A DNA stretch of 64,000 nucleotides, taken from the NCBI RefSeq assembly GCF_011745365.1, contig NW_024468914.1, positions 2,754,228 to 2,818,227 of the forward strand, read 5' to 3'. This stretch comes from Cryphonectria parasitica EP155 (lineage: Eukaryota > Ascomycota > Sordariomycetes > Diaporthales > Cryphonectriaceae). The notes beneath the pieces are model-generated. The model had not been told where the DNA came from, ran no database searches, and was given only the letters and a program-made list of their open reading frames with translations. Position numbers and translations under genes: made by a program. This document shows, one piece after another, positions 1,683 to 58,141 of the stretch (positions are counted from its first letter, which is position 1; every line of letters starts with the position of its first letter).

Positions 1683-2303
1683 ATATCGAACAGAATCAAC
1701 AAATCCTGTATTTGCAAACCTTTCTCTATTCCAAAAAGTATCCAAGATCGAAATCTTCTGATTTCCCGCTTCTTGAAGAACTTTATCGAAATGCTCATCT
1801 ATTCCTATTGCAAAAAGCGCAGTTTCGAATTCTGCAAGATATCTTCCAGAAACTCTTCTTGCTGCATCAAATGTATTCATCTGAATTGCTTTAAGTGCAA
1901 CATTATGAATTCCTTCTCTGAGAAGCTTTGCAATATTGCTATCCAATATTGAAAGTTGAAGGATGAAATTGAGAAGAGGGAAATTGAGCTTTTTTATTTG
2001 CATTAATAGAAGCGGATATAGTTTGAGAAGATAAAATGTACTCTGTATTGTAATATTACTTGTATGAAGGAATTGGATTGTATAAAAGCTAAGAAAGCTG
2101 AGGCTAAGAGAGTGCGTGTTGCTGCTGAAATGCAGGCTATAGTAGCTGAGGAATCTGCTGTTGTAGCTGAGAATTTTTCTTTTGAGAGTTTTGATTGGAA
2201 TTCTGTAGATTTGAGGAATTCTGTAGTAGATTAGTTGGATTTCCTAAAGAGTAAGATTTCCAAAGCTTCTGAATCTTGGTTTGGAGCGAAATAATTGTTC
2301 TAG
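1683..2303 (+). pseudogene. Antisense Cys-cluster/coiled-coil ORF of copy K
   Basis: 207 codons read in one uninterrupted frame apart from six stops, all explainable as transitions. The start ATG is now ATA, aligning with the ATG-L-N-R-I-N-K start of copies B and I. Visible order: N-terminal lead, Cys cluster at residues 43-72 (C-x2-R-x4-C-x8-CC-x2-C-x4-C), a Lys/Glu/Ala-rich helical stretch at about 90-160, and an acidic tail with F-D-W-N. It lies opposite to K pol, between pol and the 3' LTR, and its stop TAG shares the palindrome CTAG (2300-2303) with the pol stop. The function is unknown; a Zn-cluster DNA-binding protein is an inference. Arg at the second Cys position is not a C-to-T effect, so this subtype may lack that ligand. 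Confidence 0.7.
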
Positions 2304-14615: not shown

Positions 14616-15271
14616 AACGATTGCTCTGCCCCAAACCGAAACTCAGAAGCTTCAGAAATCTCACTCTTCATAAGATTCTCCAACTTAGAACAAACCTCTC
14701 GAGCACCAGAAAGATCTTCATCATCCCCAATACCATCTACATCGCTTAAAAAGGAATAGTTCAACATACTATTAGAAAACTAGAAAGGCTCTCTCGAAAC
14801 CAAAGCAGAAAACCTCTCAGAAAGAAAACTAACAGAAATGCAAGCTTGCTGCTCCTTCGCCAGCTCCTCCGCCTTCATACAATCAAGCTTCTCAATCATA
14901 TTCAGGCTATAGCGCACTATATATGCTATTTTCTTAGCTTACAGCTTGCATTATTTCCGCAATCAACGCATCTTAGCTATAGTACGCTCTAGCTCCTCTT
15001 CTGCATTATTAAGAGCAGCTTCAGCAGCGAAATGCTAAGCTATAATCTTTTCTATCTGCAATAGCAATAAACTATGTATATTGCAATTCTCACGCTTATG
15101 CTTAATGCATTTCATATAGCATAACAAATCCTCCTTAGAAGCAAAGCAGCGAGTTTTGCAGCTTTTGCAGAAAGAATATATCAGCATCTCAATGCAATGA
15201 GAAAGAGCAATAAGCCAGAGAGAGGTAGACTATTCTATCTTTTTATAACAAGCTTTATTAATTCTATTCAT
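14612..15271 (-). pseudogene. Antisense Cys-cluster/coiled-coil ORF of copy L (subtype shared with I)
   Basis: About 220 codons on the minus strand, closely related throughout to the ORF of copy I. The cluster reads C-x2-C-x3-C-x9-(Y)-x2-C-x7-C, with one Cys lost to Tyr. A helical Glu/Ala/Leu/Lys-rich segment follows, then an acidic Ser/Asp/Gly tail ending F-G-A-E. The stops visible are Trp or Gln codons changed by transitions. Copy L also shares the U3 core of copy I, so ORF subtype and LTR type travel together here. Unknown function. Confidence 0.65.
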
Positions 15272-17798: not shown

Positions 17799-18411
17799 AA
17801 TAATTACTCTATCCCAAACTGAAACTTAGAAGCTTCAGAAATCTCACTCTTCAGAAAATCCAACCAATCTACTACTAAATTCTCTATATTTACAGAATTC
17901 CAATCAAAATTCTCAAAGGAAGAATCTCTAGCAGCAATAGCAGACTTCTCTGCAATCATGGAACGAATCCCAGCAGCAATGCAAGCTCGCTCCTTCTCAG
18001 CCTTCTTACGCTCTAGCTTCTCTATGCTGAAAAAGCTTTAGCAAATAGCCTTTATTATCCTTTCGAATCACAAACGCTTTTGCTTCTGCAAACATTCTAT
18101 CTCTGCAGCAGTATTGCGCAGCTGCTCCTCAGCATTCTCAAATTGATTCTCCAAATATTAATATTAAATGCTTATTCAACAAATTTCCATTATACTCAGC
18201 TTCTAAACATTATACTAAGAGCAGCTTAAGCGAATATATTCAGCGCAACAGAAGGAATTCTTAACAGAGACTTAACAAAACTGAATACTATAATCCTTGC
18301 AGAAAGAATAGAAAAGTATAGCAATAGCGTTTATAAGAATCAAAGAAAGAAGAGAATCCTTTTGTTTAATCTTCTCAGCATAAGAACAAGATTTGTTGAT
18401 TCTATTCAATA
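17795..18411 (-). pseudogene. Antisense Cys-cluster/coiled-coil ORF of copy N
   Basis: About 205 codons on the minus strand, start ATG decayed to ATA. Cluster C-x2-(D-Y)...C-x8-CC-x2-(Y)-x4-C, where Tyr residues replace Cys by G-to-A. A coiled-coil-like Glu/Gln/Leu segment and the tail F-D-W-N-S-V then D-W-L-D-F-L-K-S-E are well preserved and close to those of copies A and K. The stop overlaps the pol stop. Function unknown. Confidence 0.62.
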
Positions 18412-23244: not shown

Positions 23245-23458
23245 TGTCAGGTGGAAAGGTTGCAAAGGCAATGTGGCGAGGTCTTTTCTCTCTTTCAGGG
23301 GTATACAACCAGAATAACATTGAAGCCTAAGGAGCTAAGTTCTGCTCAGCAGTGCTGACGTGGCTAGAAAGCCGCTTTATAGCCGCATATTGCTTAGTCA
23401 TCCGTAATCCAGCTGGCTTAGCTGGCCCTGATCCTTGCTGGCACAATCAGCCCTGACA
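23245..23458 (+). repeat. 5' LTR of C
   Basis: 214 bp, TGTCAGGTGGAAAGG to ...CCCTGACA. A 7-bp inverted end (TGTCAGG/CCTGACA). Nearly identical to the LTRs of D. Confidence 0.93.
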
Positions 23459-24561
23459 GATTGTCCCTCCTTATCAGGCCTTGTTCTCAAGGCCTTTGAG
23501 GCTTCCAAGCTTTTGTTGCTTCCAGGCTTCCGTTGCTCCCAGGCTTCCGTTGCTTCCAGGCTTTCGCTGCTTCCTAGCTGCTCCTACGCCTTCTCAATGC
23601 TTCAGGCTCTTAAGATCTCTCAGTGTTTCAGGCTTCTCAAAGCTTCTCAAGATCCCTCAGTGCTTCAGGTTTCTCAAAGCCTTTCAAGATCTCTCAGTGC
23701 TTCAGGCCTCTCAAGGCCTCTCAAGGTCTCTCAGTGCCTCAGGCCTCTCAAGGCCTCTCAAGGTCCCTCAGTGCCTCAGGCCTCTCAAGGCTTCTCAAGA
23801 TCTCTCAGTGCTTCAGGTTTCTCAAGGCTTCTCAAGATCTCTCAGTGCTTCAGGCCTCTCAAGGCCTCTCAAGGTCTCTCAGTGCCTCAGGCCTCTCAAG
23901 GCCTCTCAAGGTCTCTCAGTGCCTCAGGCCTCTCAAGGCCTCTCAAGGTCCCTCAGTGCCTCAGGCTTCTCAAGGCCTCTCAAGGTCCCTCAGTGCCTCA
24001 GGCTTTTAAGCCACTCAAGGTCTCTCAGTGCTTCAGGCTTCTCAAAGCCTCTCAGAGTCTCAGGCTTCTCAAAGCTTCTCAAGATCTCTCAGTGCCTCAG
24101 GCCTCTCAAGGCTTCTCAACCATCTCCCTCCTTCTCTTCTAGCTTCATCCCCGAAGCCTGTGAAAAAAAAATCTCTTTTTAATCACATTCCAGACGTAAG
24201 TCTTCCGAATGCAATACTCGCGCTATATACACTGCTCAGTTGCTACTCCTTCAGCGCTTTATTCAGGCATTCTTCAGAACTTAAAGCTGTTTGATATAGA
24301 TTGCAAGCTTTTTATTAAAAACTTAGTTTGCAGCTAAAAAGCTTAATATCTAGAATAGCATCTCTGCAGTTATAATAGATAATTATAGCTTTTTATCTTA
24401 AAAATTGCTTTTTAGCAATTCTAAAGCTATTACTATACTTCATTCTACTGCTAAATACAGAAGAGTAATTAGTTTACAATCTAATATTTAAGCAACTTTA
24501 GTTGCTAAGCAGATATTCCACTTCAGCTCTACATTCTCGCTTGAATAGCAAAGAGCATACT
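23459..24561 (+). repeat. Left internal part of C: 17-bp and 37-bp tandem arrays plus unique segment
   Basis: Short 17-bp-like repeats (CTTCCGTTGCTCCCAGG) lie at about 23510-23575. The 37-bp array fills about 23600-24115, roughly 14 units. 24116-24561 is the non-repetitive middle also present in D, ending in the first 73-bp unit where B inserted. Long ORFs in all three forward frames are produced by the repeat and are not genes. Confidence 0.88.
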
Positions 24562-29110: not shown

Positions 29111-29324
29111 TGTCAGATGGAAAGGTTGCAAAGGCAATGTGGCGAGGTCTTTTCTCTCTTTCAGGGGTATACAACCAGAATAACATTGAGGCCTAAGGAG
29201 CTAAGTTCTGCTCAGCAGTGCTGACGTGGCTAGAAAGCCGCTTTATAGCCGCATATTGCTTAGTCATCCGTAATCCAGCTGGCTTAGCTGGCCCTGAGCC
29301 TTGCTGGCACAATCGGCCCTGACA
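29111..29324 (+). repeat. 5' LTR of D
   Basis: 214 bp, TGTCAGATGG...CGGCCCTGACA. Confidence 0.95.
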
Positions 29325-29477
29325 GATTGTCCCCCCTTATCAGGCCTTGTCCTCAAGGCCTTTGAGGCTTCCGAGCTTTCGTTGCTTCCAGGCTTCCGTT
29401 GCTCCCAAGCTTCCGTTGCTCCCAAGCTTCCGTTGCTTCCAGGCTTTCGCTGCTTCCTAGCTGCTCCTACGCCTTCT
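29325..29477 (+). repeat. 17-bp repeats and lead of D
   Basis: About three to four units of CTTCCGTTGCTCCCAAG at about 29392-29450, following a short unique lead after the LTR. Confidence 0.8.
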
Positions 29478-30335
29478 CAATGCTTCAGGCTCTTAAGATC
29501 TCTCAGTGCTTCAGGCTTCTCAAAGCTTCTCAAGATCCCTCAGTGCCTCAGGTTTCTCAAAGCCTCTCAAGATCTCTCAGTGCCTCAGGCTTCTCAAGGC
29601 CTCTCAAGGTCTCTCAGTGCCTCAGGCTTCTCAAGGCCTCTCAAGATCTCTCAGTGCCTCAGGTTCCTCAAGGCCTCTCAAGATCTCTCAGTGCTTCAGG
29701 TTTCTCAAAGCCTCTCAAGATCTCTCAGTGCTTCAGGCCTCTCAAGGCCTCTCAAGGTCTCTCAGTGCCTCAGGCCTCTCAAGGCCTCTCAAGGTCTCTC
29801 AGTGCCTCAGGCCTCTCAAGGCTTCTCAAGATCTCTCAGTGCCTCAGGCTTCTAAGCCACTCAAGGTCTCTCAAGATCTCTCAGTGCCTCAGGCCTCTCA
29901 AGGCCTCTCAAGGTCTCTCAGTGCTTCAGGCCTCTCAAGGCCTCTCAAGATCTCTCAGTGCCTCAGGCTTCTAGGCCACTCAAGGTCTCTCAAGATCTCT
30001 CAGTGCCTCAGGCCTCTCAAGATCTCTCAGTGCTTCAGGTTTCTCAAAGCCTCTCAAGATCTCTCAGTGCTTCAGGCCTCTCAAGGCCTCTCAAGGTCTC
30101 TCAGTGCCTCAGGCCTCTCAAGGCCTCTCAGTGCCTCAGGCCTCTCAAGGCTTCTCAAGATCTCTCAGTGCCTCAGGTTCCTCAAGGCCTCTCAAGGTCT
30201 CTCAGTGCCTCAGGCCTCTCAAGGCCTCTCAAGGTCTCTCAGTGCCTCAGGCCTCTCAAGGCTTCTCAAGATCTCTCAGTGCCTCAGGTTCCTCAAGGCC
30301 TCTCAAGGTCTCTCAGTGCCTCAGGCCTCTCCACC
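29478..30335 (+). repeat. 37-bp minisatellite of D
   Basis: Roughly 23 units. Each unit is 10+10+10+7: CTCAAGGCCT, CTCAAGGTCT, CTCAGTGCCT, CAGGCCT, so it derives from a 10-bp motif. Variants differ at few bases and a minority of units are longer. Since 37 is not a multiple of 3 and no frame of the unit has a stop, all three forward frames give the same 37-residue cyclic peptide. These are not genes. Confidence 0.93.
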
Positions 30336-30770
30336 ATCTCCCTCCTTCTCTTCTGGCTTCGTCCCCGAAGCCTGTGAAAAAAAAATCTCTTTTTAATCAC
30401 ATTCCAAACGTAAGTCTTCCGAGTGCAATACCCGCGCCATATACGCTGCTCAGTCGCTGCTCCCTCAGCGCTTTATCCAGGCACTCTTCAGAACTTAAAG
30501 CTGTTTGATGTAGGTTGCAAGCCTTCCACCAGGGACTTGGTTTGCAGCCAAGGAGCCCAGCATCCAGAACAGCGTCCCTGCAGCTATAACGGATAATTAT
30601 AGCTTTCCGTCTTGAGAGTTGCTCTCTAGCAACTCTGAAGCCGTTGCCACGCTTCGCTCCACCGCTAGGCGCAGAAGGGTAATTGGTTCGCAACTTAATA
30701 CCCAAGCAACTTCAGTTGCCAAGCGAACACTCCGCTTCAGCTCTGCGCTCTCGCTCGAATAGCGAAGAGC
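30336..30770 (+). other. Unique segment of D
   Basis: The only non-repetitive interior part, shared with C at 24116-24550. It has an A-run followed by TCTCTTTTTAATCAC near 30377. A 102-codon minus-strand frame (30397-30705) exists but is closed by mutations in C and resembles nothing I know, so I do not call it a gene. Confidence 0.6.
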
Positions 30771-35479: not shown

Positions 35480-36101
35480 AATAATCGCTTCGCCCCGAAT
35501 CAAGATCCAAAAGCCTCAGAAACCTCGCTCTTCAGAAAACCCAACCAATCCATTACTGCATTCCTCACATTTACAGAATTCCAGTCAAAACCCTCAAAAG
35601 AAGAATCTTCAGTAATTACAGCAGATTTCTCTGCAACTACAGAACGAACCCTGGCAGCAATGCAAGCCTGCTCCTCTGCCTCCATCCTTTCCAACTCCTC
35701 TACATTATCAATTTCCCAACGAACAGCGCACATCATCTTTTCATATCACATCCTTTTCTGCTTGCACAGCTTAAGAAGTTTAGCATTCAGCTCAGCAGCC
35801 TTCTTTTTAATCATCTCCATCTCCATCTTCAAACAATAATATTAAGCAGTCACACAATTCAATTATACAAGCATTAGGCTACAAACATTGCAATTTAACA
35901 AACTCAGATATATGCAGATTTAATAGCAGGAAGATTCGGATTTAGCAATCTTGCATTCAGCTAAAAGATTATAATCTTCACAGTATAAGCAAAGCATAAG
36001 CAAAAGAGAACCGAAAGTAGCTATAGCAGAAAGAAGGAACGATTTCTGCAAAGAACGAGAATAAGGCTTAGCAATACAACGAGAACTGACTCTGTTCAAT
36101 A
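35476..36101 (-). pseudogene. Antisense Cys-cluster/coiled-coil ORF of copy A
   Basis: About 208 codons, start ATG decayed to ATA. Residues about 37-65 hold C-x2-C-x8-C-x8-C-(Y)-x2-C and further Cys. A Met/Glu/Lys-rich helix (M-E-M-E-M-I-K-K-K) follows, then 35500-35736 is fully open: E-E-L-E-R-M-E-A-E-E, F-D-W-N-S-V and D-W-L-G-F-L-K-S-E-V. A TGA (from CGA) precedes the final F-G-A-K. Opposite to pol, ending at the shared CTAA, and starting about 90 bp from the 3' LTR. Function unknown. Confidence 0.68.
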
Positions 36102-44672: not shown

Positions 44673-45143
44673 ATGAATAATAAAGTTGCAAAACTAAAAT
44701 CTTCGAATTCTTATTCTAATAAGAAGAAGCAGAAAAGCTTTCTTCTTCAGTTTATTCTTTCAAACAGTCTTGATATGCATCTCTGTTTCTATTGCGATGA
44801 TTAGGGTTTGAAGTTGTGTATTGTTTCTTCTTATAATTCATTCTGTTATTCGGAGTATATTTCTCAGAATTGTACTAAGTATGATATTCTGAAACTAATG
44901 AATGCTACTGAATTTCTTCTTATTTCTACTTAATATCAAAAACTGAAAAATAAGATAGAAGAGTTAAAGCTAAAGTTGATTAAGCTGTGCTAATAAAAGA
45001 AGATGTGATATGAAAGAATGTTTCAGGCTATCTGTTGAGATCTTAAGAATCTTGAAGAGCTTGAGAAGAAGAAAGCTGAGAAGGCTAAAGCTAAGAGAGT
45101 ATATATTGCTGCTGAAGTATAAGCTATGATAATTGAAGAATCT
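44673..45143 (+). pseudogene. Antisense Cys-cluster/coiled-coil ORF of copy F
   Basis: Begins M-N-N-K-V-A-K-L-K. Residues 38-71 read C-x2-C-x7-C-x8-C-(Y)-x2-(Y)-x4-C-x3-D, with two Tyr where Cys is expected. A long Lys/Leu/Glu heptad-like segment follows (K-L-K-N-K-I-E-E-L-K-L-K-L; L-E-E-L-E-K-K-K-A-E-K). Four or five stops. The C-terminal tail is cut off by copy G at 45144. Its N terminus lacks the M-L-N-R-I-N-K form of the other copies. Confidence 0.65.
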
Positions 45144-50671: not shown

Positions 50672-51134
50672 TGTTATAACTCATTCAACATGCAGATCAC
50701 AAAACAGATCACAAGTAACAAGAACCAGGTATCATGATTCAACAACGAACAACCAGCAAGGATTACATAATCCAGGGATAGGATTATGAGTTGTGGCCAA
50801 TCAGGAAGGAACCGGAGCAGTCGACAATCAGTTCTCACGGTTCAGGCAGTAGACTGCAACAACTAACCTCCGACTCTTGCAATCCATACTGAAGAGCTGA
50901 GTATATAAGAACACATTCATTACTATTAGATAGACTCAGTATATAGCTCTTCAGTTATTAATCTAAGTATTCAGTTTTATATACTAAGTAGCTCTAAAAG
51001 CAGTAAATATTTGCATTGCTTATTAGAACTTGTACAGTTCCGTATTCAAGAACTTGATACTTTGATATCGCTCTTGTTAGTATAAATCTCTTTGTATACT
51101 TAGAAATCTTCAGATTGCTATAATACTTATTATA
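50672..51134 (+). repeat. 5' LTR of I
   Basis: 463 bp, TGTTATAACTC to the decayed ...TTATTATA. U3 core CCGGAGCAGTCGAC...GTAGACTGC...CCTCCGAC is shared with L. Arms ACTGAAGAGC at 50888-50897 and GCTCTTCAGT at 50946-50955. Confidence 0.94.
50902..50909 (+). promoter_or_regulatory. TATA box of I 5' LTR
   Basis: TATATAAG directly after the left inverted arm; the same relative position in all LTRs examined. Confidence 0.6.
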
Positions 51135-53339: not shown

Positions 53340-56300
53340 CAGAACAGATTATACTTATATCAAGTTCAATATATACATTCAAGAATACAAATACTATACA
53401 CTATTGAATAGTAGCACTTAGAGAAACTTCATATCTCTATACATTATCAATCAGGCACAATTATAATAGAAATGAAAGAGATGCTTATACACTCTCAGCA
53501 CTATAAAAGAATAATCTATTACATACAACTAAGGAGTAATCAATAAGAAGACTGATTATCTATTTATTTTAATCCAAGAATGTATAATCAGAGCTTTCTT
53601 TAATATTACAGATATAGCATAGCATAAGCTGATTATAGAGCTTCTATAGCTTAAGAAGCACAATCCTTGAATCAATTAGATTACTAGCTAGATCTCATAA
53701 GAACAAGCTATACCTAGAGAAATAGTTATAATCAATAGCGCAGAATCGAAGCTAGTAATTAAAGAATATTCAGAAAAAGAAGCTTTATACAACTTCATAT
53801 ATACCTCCAAGTCAGCAGAGCTAGCAGTTCAAGAAGAAGAACCTAGTAACAAGCAAACCCAAATAATGCTAAAGCGCTAACAGATTAGCAAAACAATAGA
53901 AGCGGGATCCTCAGCAAGTTAGTTCGCTTCGGAGCAGCAAGGAAAAGCTTCAGAATATGAATTATAAACCTATACGAGAAAAACCTCGAAACCAAGCTCT
54001 CAAGCGCTCAATCCAGCCCGAAGCGAACGCTTAAGGCTCTTGAAAACGCCATCAGAAAAGAAGCATGCTCAACAGTACTTACTATTCCTCCAGATAGCAG
54101 AAACAGTACAAGAACCAGAATCAATACTTGCGAATATACTACGAGAATACTATAAGTTTAAGAAACTATTCCAGGAAGAATTGGATACAGAATTGCTAGA
54201 ATACAGCTTATATAACTACAAAATCCTGCTACAGAAAGGAAAACAGCCCAAATTCTTCCCTATCTACAAACTAGATAAAGCATAGCTAGAAGCATTTAGA
54301 GAGTATCTCGATAAGAATCTTAAAAAAGAATATATACAATCATTGCAATTATTAGCAGAATATCTTATTCTGTTTATACCTAAAAAGAATAGCAAGCTCA
54401 GGCTATATATTAATTATAAACAACTCAATAATATCATAATTAAGAACTAATACTCATTATTACTTATTAAGAAACTATAAGATAAGCTATAAGAAGCATA
54501 GTAGTTTATAATTCTAAATCTAAAAGAAGCTTACAATCTAATCAGAGTTAAGAAAGAAAAAGAATGAAAAACTGCTTTCAGAATATACTATAAATACTAT
54601 AAATATTTGATTATGCTTTTTGATTTAACAAATACTTCAGCTTTATTCTAGAAAATAATTAATTATATTCTATACAAGCATCTGAATTAGTTCATTATTG
54701 CTTATCTTAATAACATTCTTATTTATTCTCAAATATTGAAAGAATACAAGGAATATATGAAAATAGTATTGTAAATGCTCCAAGATGCAAAACTCCTTGT
54801 AAAACCTACAAAAAGTTACTTTTATATATAAAAAGTTAACTATCTCGAATTCACAATCAAGCCAGAATGCATTAAGCTATAGAAAGATAAGATAGAAGCT
54901 ATCAGAAATTAGCTAATTCCTAGGAATATCAGAGATATTAGATCTTTCCTTGAATACATCAACTTCTACAAGCAGTTCATTAAGAACTACAGCTGGATTG
55001 CACACTTTCTTACAAATCTTATTAAAAAAGAACAGCCTTTCAAATGAATCTCTAAGATATAAGAAGCTTTCAATAAGATTATCAAATATATTACCTTAGA
55101 ATTAATTCTGTATAAAGCAGATCTCTATAAACCCTTTAAAATTAAGACTGATGCATTAGAATATGCACTCGGAAAACAACTTGATTAATAAGATAATCAA
55201 GAGCATCTAAGAATTATAAGCAACTTCTCAAAAAAGTTGAATAATCCGGAAATTAACTACAGAATCTCTAATTAGAAACTTATAGCAATAGTAAAAGCTT
55301 TCGAGAAGTAGCAATATTATCTTATTAATGCATAATACTTAATTATAGTTTATTCGGATTACAAGAATCTAACTACATTTATAATAACTAAGATTTTGAA
55401 TAAGCAACAAGTTAGATAAGCAGAATTTCTTTTATAATTCGATTTCAAAATTGTATACTGCAAAAGCTTGGAAAACAGATAAGCAGATGCTCTTAGCAGA
55501 AGATCAAACTATCGAAATGCAGACTCTTCGAATATATAGAACATCTTTGCTCAAGATGAATCAGAAAATCTCATTAATATATATAGAAAACTGAATGCTG
55601 CTCTCAGAATCGAATTCTTAGAAAGAGATTCAGAATCAATAATTCCAGATGAATAAAACAATTATATTAGAAATATATATAGTATATCAGTATACGGATA
55701 TCAGAGAGTTAGAGCAATTTATAAATGCATTAAAAAATACTAAAACTTATCAGATCTTAGAAAAAGAATTAAGAATATCCTATAATAATACAATAGCTGC
55801 AAAAAGAATAAAGCAGAAAGATATAAGCCTTATGAATTATTATATCTTTTATCAGTACTTATAATTATTTAGCAATCTATCAGTCTAAACTTTATTATTA
55901 AGCTATTTTTTTTATAAGAATTCTTAATTAAAGTATAATATGATAGCATTCTAGTAGTAGTTTGCAAACTGAGTAAGTATGCTTATTTTCTTCTCTATAA
56001 GGAAAGCAGTATAGCAGAGGAACTTGCATATGCATTCCTCAGAACAATCATCGCTAACTACAGCATATCAGAAGAAATAATCTCCAATAGAAACAGAAAG
56101 TTCAATTCAAAGTTTTAAACTTTGCTTATAAAACAGCTTGAAACATATTATAGAATATCTATAGCATTTCACTCGCAAATAGATGAATAGATAGAAAGAA
56201 TAAATCAGATTATCAAATAGTATCTTTAATACTATATCAGCTAAGAATAGAATAACTGGATTAATTTATTGCTTCTTATACAGTTCGCTTATAATAGCGC

Positions 56301-56931
56301 AGATACAAGTATAACAAAGAAGTTATTATTCTTTGCACTCTATAGATATAATCCAACAGCTTACTATAAAGCATTACTGAAAATAGATACAGAAGCTGCA
56401 GATAAAAGGATTAAGAAGATTAAGAAAGTTTAGAAGGAATTCTGATCAGAACTACAATTTGTTTAGGAACGAATGATACAATATGCAAACTCTAAGAGGA
56501 TTGAGAGACTAATTCTACAGAAAGGAGATAAAGTCTATCTACTTCGAAAAAACATCAAAATAACAAGATTTAGCAATAAACTCAATTATAAGAAGTTAGA
56601 ACTATTCAAAATCTTATAATAAATCTTCCTAGTTAACTACAAGTTAGTATTATCTCATAGGATGAGGATATACTCAGTTTTCCACATCTTACTACTGGAA
56701 CCAGCAGCACAGAAAATACTAACAGACAACACAGCAGAAATGGAAAACAATGAATCAGAGTATAAAGTAGAAAAAATTCTTAAATACAGAGGCACAGACA
56801 AAACAAGGAAATATCTCATCAAATGAAAAGGCTACTCAGCAAGCGAAAACTCATGGGAACCATGGAAGAACATTGAGAACGCTTAAGAAAGAGTAGCTGA
56901 ATATTGGAAAAGAAAGGAAACCAGTACCTAA
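53340..56931 (+). pseudogene. pol: pol of I
   Basis: Protease L-L-N-S-S at 53401-53415, RT at about 54290-54990 with Y-L-N-N at 54703-54714, RNase H at about 55080-55560, integrase at about 55730-56620 (first Asp as L-N-F-I near 55890; second as I-S-N-R-N), chromodomain at about 56755-56875 with K-G-Y-S-A-S-E-N-S-W-E-P best preserved. Ends at TAA 56929-56931, overlapping the antisense stop. The region after integrase is GC-rich and almost intact, whereas RT is broken throughout. Confidence 0.87.
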
Positions 56932-57587
56932 GATAATCGCTCCGCCCCGAACCGAAGCCCAGAAGCTCCAGAAACCTCACTCCTCAAATCTTCCAACTCA
57001 GAACGAACCTCTCAAGCACCAGAAGAACTTCCATCACCCTCAATACCACCTACATCACCTAAAAAGGAATAGTCCAACATACTACCAGGAGACCAGGAGA
57101 GTTCTCCCGAGACCAAAGCTGAAAATCTCTCAGGAAGGGAATCAGCAGGAACACAAGCCTACTGCTCCTTTGCCAGCTCCTCCGCCTCCACACGATCAAG
57201 CTCCTCAATCATATCCAAACCACAGCGCACCGCACACGCCATTTTCTCAGCCCACAGCTTGCGCTGCTTCCGCAGCCAACGCACCTTGGCCATAGCACGC
57301 TCCAGCTCCTCCTCCACATCATCGAGAGCAGCCTCAGCAGCGGAATACTGAGCTACAATCTTTTCCACCTGCAACAGCAACAAACCATGCATATCACAAT
57401 TCCCACGCTTATATTTGATACACTCTGTACAGCATAACGAATTCTCCTCGGAAGCAAGGCAGCAAGCTTTGCAACCCTTGCAGAAAGAATACATCAGCAT
57501 CTCAATGCAACGGGAAAGAGCAATAAGCTAGAGAAAGGTAGACTGTTCTATCTTTTTGTAACAAGATTTGTTGATTCTATTCAGCAT
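56928..57587 (-). pseudogene. Antisense Cys-cluster/coiled-coil ORF of copy I (best copy)
   Basis: 220 codons in one frame from ATG 57587 (M-L-N-R-I-N-K-S) to TAG at 56928, with only three internal stops (residue 20, one near 57156, one in the tail), each a single transition from Gln or Arg. Residues 36-65: C-x2-C-x3-C-x9-C-x2-C-x7-C-D. Residues about 75-145 are a charged helix (A-A-E-A-A-L-D-D-V-E-E-E-L) likely to form a coiled coil. The tail is acidic and Ser/Gly-rich (F-L-G-D-V-G-G-I-E-G-D-G). Zn cluster, coiled coil and acidic tail is the layout of Gal4-type factors, but the spacing between Cys 2 and 3 is short, so this is tentative. It starts 91 bp from the 3' LTR, suggesting antisense transcription from U3. 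Confidence 0.75.
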
Positions 57588-57665
57588 CTCAATTAGAAAA
57601 GCAAGATTATAAACACGGAAACTTGCTAGAATACTTATAAAAGATTGTTGGAAATAACAATTAAT

Positions 57666-57678
57666 AGAAGGAAGATGA
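57666..57678 (+). promoter_or_regulatory. Polypurine tract of I
   Basis: AGAAGGAAGATGA directly before the 3' LTR; the same motif precedes the LTR in A (GGAAGAAGATAA) and, on the minus strand, in B. Plus-strand primer site in reverse transcription. Confidence 0.65.
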
Positions 57679-58141
57679 TGTTATAACCCATCCAATATGC
57701 AGATCACAAAACAGATTACAAGTAACAAGAACCAGGTATTATAATTCAACAACGAACAACTAGCAAGGATTACATAACTCAGGAATAGAGTTATAGGTTG
57801 TAGCTAATCAGGAAGAAACCGGAGCAGTTGATGATCAGTTCTCACGATCCAAGCAGTAGACTGCAACAACCAACCTCCAACTCTTGCAGTTCATACTGAA
57901 GAGCTGAGTATATAAGAACACATTCATTACCATCAGATAGACTCAGTATATAGCTCTTCAGTTATCAATCTAAGTATTCAGTTTCATATACTGAGTAGCC
58001 CCAAAGGCAGTGAACACTTGCATCGCTTATTAGGACTTGTACGGTTCCGTATTCAAGAACTTAATACTTTGATACCGCTCTTGTTAGTATAAACCCCTTC
58101 GTGTACTTAGGAATCTTCGGATTGCTGCAGTGCTCATTACA
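57679..58141 (+). repeat. 3' LTR of I
   Basis: 463 bp, TGTTATAACCC to ...TGCTCATTACA. Less mutated than the 5' LTR, particularly in the right half. Confidence 0.94.

What the first reader, a model, noticed from the sequence alone, without database searches (positions are those of the whole stretch)
56928..57587. Antisense Zn-cluster/coiled-coil ORF carried by every family-1 retrotransposon copy whose 3' part is visible
Copies K, L, N, E, B, A, F and I all carry, opposite to pol and between pol and the 3' LTR, an ORF of about 205-220 codons with the same layout: M-L-N-R-I-N-K-type start, Cys cluster, charged helix, acidic tail. In B the cluster is C-x2-C-x6-C-x8-C-x2-(Y from C)-x6-C, which matches the Zn2Cys6 spacing; in I it is C-x2-C-x3-C-x9-C-x2-C-x7-C. 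Interrupting stops are nearly all single transitions, so the frame was open when the copies inserted. A retrotransposon that encodes its own Gal4-like regulator on the antisense strand would be unusual; I do not know a described example. The homology and frame are seen; the regulator role is inferred.
Basis: partly seen in the sequence, partly recalled or inferred. Interest (0 to 1): 0.9.

Follow-up and report, generated by a model that had tools for sequence, protein, structure and literature searches.

The report
Jumping gene with matched regulator cassettes
A family of fungal jumping genes carries, on its reverse strand, a gene for a protein that looks like a gene switch, and the DNA-binding half of that protein changes in step with a stretch of the element's own control region, as if each sub-type carried a switch matched to its own lock.

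Summary
The antisense ORF at 57587-56928(-) is real. It lies opposite to pol, between pol and the 3' LTR, in a chromodomain Ty3/Gypsy element of Cryphonectria parasitica. At least 150 copies exist; most are broken, but six long ones have no stop, and relatives occur in many ascomycetes. The protein has six near-invariant cysteines in Zn2Cys6-like spacing, a long coiled coil and an acidic, aromatic tail: a Gal4-like layout, though the Zn2Cys6 homology is weak. Antisense accessory genes are known (Boty brtn; plant Retand/Grande), without a known function.

New here: in 30 of 36 copies with one and the same pol cluster, nine different Zn-cluster+coil modules occur, and each goes with its own U3 segment. 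Of 30 copies in which that segment could be anchored, 29 pair module with segment (26 of 27 in the types with two or more copies); pol does not follow type. Nor do the ~95 bp between the two islands. In six of nine types the U3 segment is significantly rich in palindromes. I infer a self-specific dimeric regulator of the LTR promoter. Binding, and whether it activates or represses, are not shown; between types, closer modules do not have closer U3 segments.

The parts
56928..57587 (-). antisense accessory ORF, 220 codons with stop, three internal stops (type 1 module)
57396..57491 (-). six-cysteine Zn-cluster-like segment (residues 33-64; residue 33 is Tyr here)
   Evidence: positions counted from the translation
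57153..57377 (-). predicted long helices / coiled coil (residues 71-145)
   Evidence: model of the intact copy L021, same residue numbering
56931..57152 (-). C-terminal tail, acidic and aromatic in relatives
57588..57678 (.). stretch between ORF start and 3' LTR: purine-rich tract next to the LTR; antisense-strand intron-like signals (RTAAGT, CTAAT)
57679..58139 (+). 3' LTR
57792..57897 (.). U3 island (about -205 to -310 from the ORF start), type-specific segment
   Evidence: this copy itself lacks the anchor motif, so its island is placed by distance
57860..57890 (.). inverted repeat, 7-bp arms, 17-bp spacer, inside the U3 island
   Evidence: type 1 islands are not significantly palindrome-rich
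50672..51132 (+). 5' LTR of the same copy
54505..56823 (+). pol, reverse transcriptase to integrase matches (broken)
14843..15268 (-). second type 1 ORF copy, several stops
17963..18406 (-). type 6 ORF copy, several stops
35653..36096 (-). type 3 ORF copy, several stops
1683..2246 (+). type 5 ORF copy, several stops
44679..45128 (+). type 4 ORF copy (start from the match; end estimated from module length)

Best explanation
The ORF is an accessory gene of a Boty-like chromodomain Ty3/Gypsy family. It encodes a roughly 200-residue protein: a Zn2Cys6-like DNA-binding head, a coiled coil that dimerises it, and an acidic aromatic tail that acts on transcription. It is read from the antisense strand, starting on the 3' LTR side. 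The dimer binds type-specific, often palindromic sites in U3 and so regulates its own LTR promoter and little of its siblings'; I think activation more likely than repression. Head, coil and U3 segment form a matched cassette, of which many versions are carried on one common backbone (U5, pol, tail). Shown: ORF, conservation, cassette co-variation, palindromes in six of nine types. Inferred: zinc, dimer, binding, direction of control.
Confidence: 0.62

Rival explanations
1. Linked haplotypes only: U3 and the module travel together because both lie at the 3' end of the RNA that seeds the new U3 (retroelement biology, recalled). The protein acts elsewhere, for example on nucleic acid packaging or on host chromatin.
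For: Short distance; U5, which comes from the other RNA end, does not follow type in the low-damage set (within 0.880, between 0.873, p 0.32); no graded module-island relation.
Against: The stretch between the two islands does not follow type: ARI 0.07 in 30 copies, and inside type 5 two copies have one version and two the other, while all four keep the same module and island (0 diagnostic and 14 cross-cutting columns of 94). Linkage alone does not predict palindromes. Strong constraint on that stretch could still mask linkage.
Confidence: 0.22
2. A self-specific repressor or copy-number control, like a phage immunity repressor, not an activator.
For: Two antisense-convergent units, sites next to a TATA-like sequence in types 4, 5 and 6, many exchangeable specificities on one backbone.
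Against: Acidic aromatic tails resemble activation domains (resemblance recalled); the tail is conserved apart from the head.
Confidence: 0.25
3. An anti-silencing factor like Arabidopsis VANC: it binds its own non-coding motifs and lifts silencing.
For: VANC proteins have variable regions and co-evolve with motifs in related elements (abstract and discussion of PMC5735166).
Against: No shared sequence was looked for; host and element class differ; many copies here look RIP-mutated (GC of pol about 0.27 in the window copy), so no protection is visible.
Confidence: 0.1
4. Chance or by-product ORF on the strand opposite to coding or repeat sequence.
For: Most copies have stops.
Against: Conserved in 199 proteins from three searches; transversion fractions by codon position 0.249, 0.180, 0.308; other frames of six stop-free copies hold 1-14 stops save one frame of one copy.
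Confidence: 0.01

Closest known systems
brtn, antisense gene of Boty-like elements in Botrytis cinerea (Zhao et al. 2011)
   Same: Antisense additional gene in a Ty3/Gypsy element with a chromodomain; [quoted passage not shown]
   Different: The original paper is not held and its protein was not compared. No matched U3 cassette is mentioned in the passages seen.
Plant antisense ORFs of Retand (TRP28), Grande, RIRE2
   Same: Antisense, between pol and 3' LTR, present in most copies; DNA binding proposed for TRP28 (abstract and discussion; passages).
   Different: Plant elements, another protein domain, much longer pol-3' LTR region; no paired U3 types in what I read.
VANC proteins of VANDAL transposons, Arabidopsis
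   Same: Element-encoded sequence-specific DNA-binding proteins that evolve together with motifs in their own non-coding DNA (abstract and discussion).
   Different: DNA transposons in plants, anti-silencing role shown by experiment, tandem repeats, not exchangeable cassettes on one backbone.
Zn2Cys6 (Gal4-type) factors: HAP1, PUT3, LAC9
   Same: Six cysteines in similar spacing, then a coiled coil; weak structural rows.
   Different: Little similarity beyond the cysteines; the basic residues next to the second and third cysteine are not a family feature here.
Phage repressor/operator immunity modules (recalled)
   Same: Exchangeable matched regulator and site on a shared backbone.
   Different: Prokaryotic viruses; there binding and repression are proven.

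Membership tests
Zn2Cys6 binuclear cluster (PF00172) | six cysteines, CX2CX6CX5-12CX2CX6-8C (spacing recalled) | tested here: met
   96 of 119 relatives fit a slightly wider pattern, 161 of 199; commonest spacing 2-7-9-2-7, so the second gap is often 7, not 6
Zn2Cys6 binuclear cluster (PF00172) | profile match at Pfam's cut-off | tested here: inconclusive
   none for L021 or the window stretch; 19 of 90 members of A3 and 45 of 68 of A6 at E<=10; P0103 passes, 21.8 against 21, but with a shifted register
Zn2Cys6 binuclear cluster (PF00172) | sequence similarity beyond the cysteines, including basic residues between cysteines 2 and 3 | tested here: inconclusive
   hhalign 26.7; 3 of 60 controls keeping cysteine columns score higher, 0 of 60 with all columns permuted; typed reference set of 5
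Zn2Cys6 binuclear cluster (PF00172) | same fold | tested here: inconclusive
Zn2Cys6 binuclear cluster (PF00172) | binds two zinc ions and DNA | not testable with these tools
   needs protein
antisense accessory ORF between pol and 3' LTR (brtn, Retand kind) | antisense, between pol and 3' LTR | tested here: met
   window copy; opposite to integrase in the 5 stop-free loci L029-L033 and L021
antisense accessory ORF between pol and 3' LTR (brtn, Retand kind) | homology to BRTN | not tested
   no BRTN sequence was available
Ty3/Gypsy chromodomain element | RT, RNase H, integrase, chromodomain | tested here: met
   RVT_1; RT_RNaseH, Chromo above cut-off; rve 29.7, below its cut-off 32.6
self-specific regulator with matched sites | regulator and target types co-vary | tested here: met
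   the graded test between types is null
self-specific regulator with matched sites | binding to the matched site | not testable with these tools
   needs protein and DNA

The most novel reading that the evidence does not exclude
LTR retrotransposons of ascomycetes carry exchangeable self-recognition cassettes, an antisense Zn-cluster regulator plus its matching U3 sites, much as phages carry immunity modules. Many specificities, some shared between species, sit on one common backbone and keep sibling elements from controlling each other.
Probability: 0.5. Interest if true: 0.93.

Novelty: new variant of a known kind. Interest (0 to 1): 0.85.

Why it matters
[quoted passage not shown] A head that co-varies with a U3 segment next to the promoter gives a direct hypothesis and a simple test: does the head bind its own U3 and not its sibling's? 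If so, selfish elements within one genome have private control channels, swapped as cassettes, and fungal genomes hold a large natural set of protein-DNA specificity pairs.

Tried and rejected
Pfam on the full window ORF failed because of its stops; the open stretch and the intact copy L021 gave no Zn_clus. PDB sequence search gave no Zn2Cys6 factor, for one sequence or for the profile. Foldseek against PDB: nothing significant.

A fixed palindrome geometry (8-bp arms, 9-bp spacer), seen by eye in types 3, 4, 5 and 6, did not hold for all. In one search two such dyads appear in L030, L029, L032, L033, L049 and L054, one in L053, L052, L055, L051 and L023:7914, none in L050, L024:6690, L031 or any of the 4 type 1 and 2 type 2 copies. 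I therefore use the spacer-free statistics (63 axes against 19.2 expected over 20 chosen, non-independent copies; nine representatives). The copies were my choice of the least damaged ones; L055 (type 3), L024:6690 (type 7), L026 and L027 (type 2), L025, L023 and L004 (type 1), among others, are not significant alone.

I expected related modules to have related islands: not so, apart from types 1 and 2. dN/dS by NG86 (0.24-0.58 over nine pairs) is not corrected for RIP and I do not lean on it. The 3' splice site of the intron-like stretch is unclear: the AG (or AA) test just before the start was met in 16 of 40. Single-linkage clusters of heads chain together (77 in one), so I use the trees instead (36 of 40 chosen sequences could be split and used for the head tree).

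Papers: searches. None of the listings showed an LTR element with a Zn-cluster antisense gene matched to U3; this covers open-licence papers only, and subscription work is mostly missing.

Full report
What is there. The window lies in a 43.8-Mb assembly. Proteins with NCBI names on contigs of the same lengths identify it as Cryphonectria parasitica EP155. The ORF 57587-56928(-) is in a copy with LTRs 50672-51132 and 57679-58139 and pol matches from 54505 to 56823. In less damaged relatives pol ends in a chromodomain (PF00385); in L032 the stop codons of pol and of the antisense ORF overlap, so the two genes run tail to tail.

Conservation. Three searches gave 199 proteins, among them proteins named from Pyricularia, Colletotrichum, Cordyceps, Metarhizium, Fusarium, Gaeumannomyces and Cytospora and Pseudogymnoascus, nearly all hypothetical. 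Their genome context was not available, so whether each sits antisense to pol is untested. In C. parasitica 150 matches were scored of 286 candidates; six long ones have no stop. All six (L021, L029-L033) lie next to integrase on the opposite strand. Between nine representative modules, transversions are 0.249, 0.180 and 0.308 at codon positions 1, 2 and 3.

Modules. Heads (Zn+coil) and tails do not share a history. In C. parasitica L029 and L030 are 92% alike in the head and 26% in the tail. Nine copies with the common tail are one side of a branch in the tail tree (support 70), but in the head tree holding them together is rejected (AU p 0.00013). There, type 3 heads (L036, L037) join P0010 and P0031 (98), type 4 (L032, L033) joins P0046 (94) and type 6 (L041, L042) joins P0011 (99), although P0010, P0031 and P0046 share another tail. 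Colletotrichum orbiculare P0072 and Pyricularia oryzae P0071 are 80% alike in the head and 34% in the tail. So head types look older than the species' tails. The sources of the metagenome proteins are unnamed.

Cassette and U3. Over 13 less damaged loci, and with permutation over 11, identity within and between types is 0.886 and 0.622 in U3, 0.893 and 0.541 in Zn, 0.915 and 0.605 in the coil, but 0.880 and 0.873 in U5, 0.785 and 0.763 in the tail, 0.804 and 0.810 in pol. Counting only transversions, which RIP does not make, a sliding view of 8 copies of 4 types shows pol equal within and between types (0.99-1.00) and two islands: about -350 to -110 from the ORF start (between-type minimum 0.61) and about +20 to +480. 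One search gives the column counts.

All copies. From 44 places I dropped four (L021 and L022, which lack the LTR there, and two fragments of L028), leaving 40. Clustering module and U3 apart gives ARI 0.80, module and pol 0.03 (36 copies); L003, L010, L018 and the three type 7 copies do not fit. A CCCTAACCC-like motif lies in 30 of 40 copies, 28 of them at -193 to -208 (6 of 36 pol and 0 of 40 module segments have it). Using it as anchor, the 110 bp before it fall into nine groups matching nine module types in 29 of 30 copies; three types have one copy each, so 26 of 27 is the fair count. The exception, L010, pairs a type 1 module with a type 2 island; types 1 and 2 are the pair closest in both. 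The other ten copies, the window's 57138- among them, had no anchor and were left out; the window copy groups with its type. Thirty of 36 copies share one pol cluster across nine module types.

Linkage or function. The stretch between the islands is shared: 27 of 30 copies of eight types fall in one cluster (ARI 0.07), and inside type 5 two versions occur while module and island stay the same. Exchange has thus happened between them, at least once, without breaking the pair. This favours selection for matching, but strong constraint on that stretch, which holds the purine tract and intron-like signals (RTAAGT in 31 of 40, CTRAY in 33 of 40, GTAAGT in 0 of 532 control windows), remains possible. 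The null graded test is the main result against a simple recognition code, though islands of different types may be too far diverged to show one.

Sites. The aligned islands hold inverted repeats that differ by type. Nine representatives: six significant by two statistics, types 1, 2 and 3 not. In types 4, 5 and 6 a TATATA lies at about -305 to -320 in low-damage copies, beside the island, on the side of the sense transcription unit; the promoter itself is inferred.

Known kinds. brtn of Boty is the nearest relative in layout; I saw it in a reference list and methods passages, review passages and a passage on a Boty-like copy with chromodomain; the original is not held. Plant Retand elements (abstract, discussion) and VANC (abstract, discussion) are analogues.

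Verdict. An ordinary-looking accessory ORF turns out to be one half of a cassette. I give 0.62 to the self-specific regulator, 0.22 to linkage alone (the rivals overlap, so these do not add to one).

Noticed in passing
L021:5296-6984(-) and L022:2990-4684(+): Two ORF copies lie directly behind a DUF7924 ORF (PF25545, 41.2 bits, cut-off 27) with the same junction and no 3' LTR in between; 21 DUF7924 matches in the genome. Perhaps a captured or duplicated segment.
   Followed up: partly
L031, stretch before the ORF; all types, about -70 to -50: A small inverted repeat (CGTTG..CAACG; in L031 CTTTCG..CGAAAG) before the GTAAGT, apparently kept through changes on both sides; seen in the alignment, not tested.
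   Followed up: no
C. parasitica U3, about -205 from the ORF start: Telomere-like CCCTAACCC motif at a near-constant place in 28 of 40 copies of different types; perhaps a site of a general regulatory factor.
   Followed up: partly
window 23435-24182 and 29301-30396: Long frames made of a short tandem peptide repeat (SRSLSASG-like), open in more than one frame.
   Followed up: no
window 57001-57400: The ORF core has GC 0.52 while pol of the same copy is about 0.27; in L021 the values are 0.55 and about 0.38, so the ORF seems less changed by RIP.
   Followed up: no
public proteins P0009, P0010, P0031, P0046, P0003, P0005, P0085: An unnamed source shows the same picture as C. parasitica: one tail cluster with four head clusters.
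   Followed up: partly
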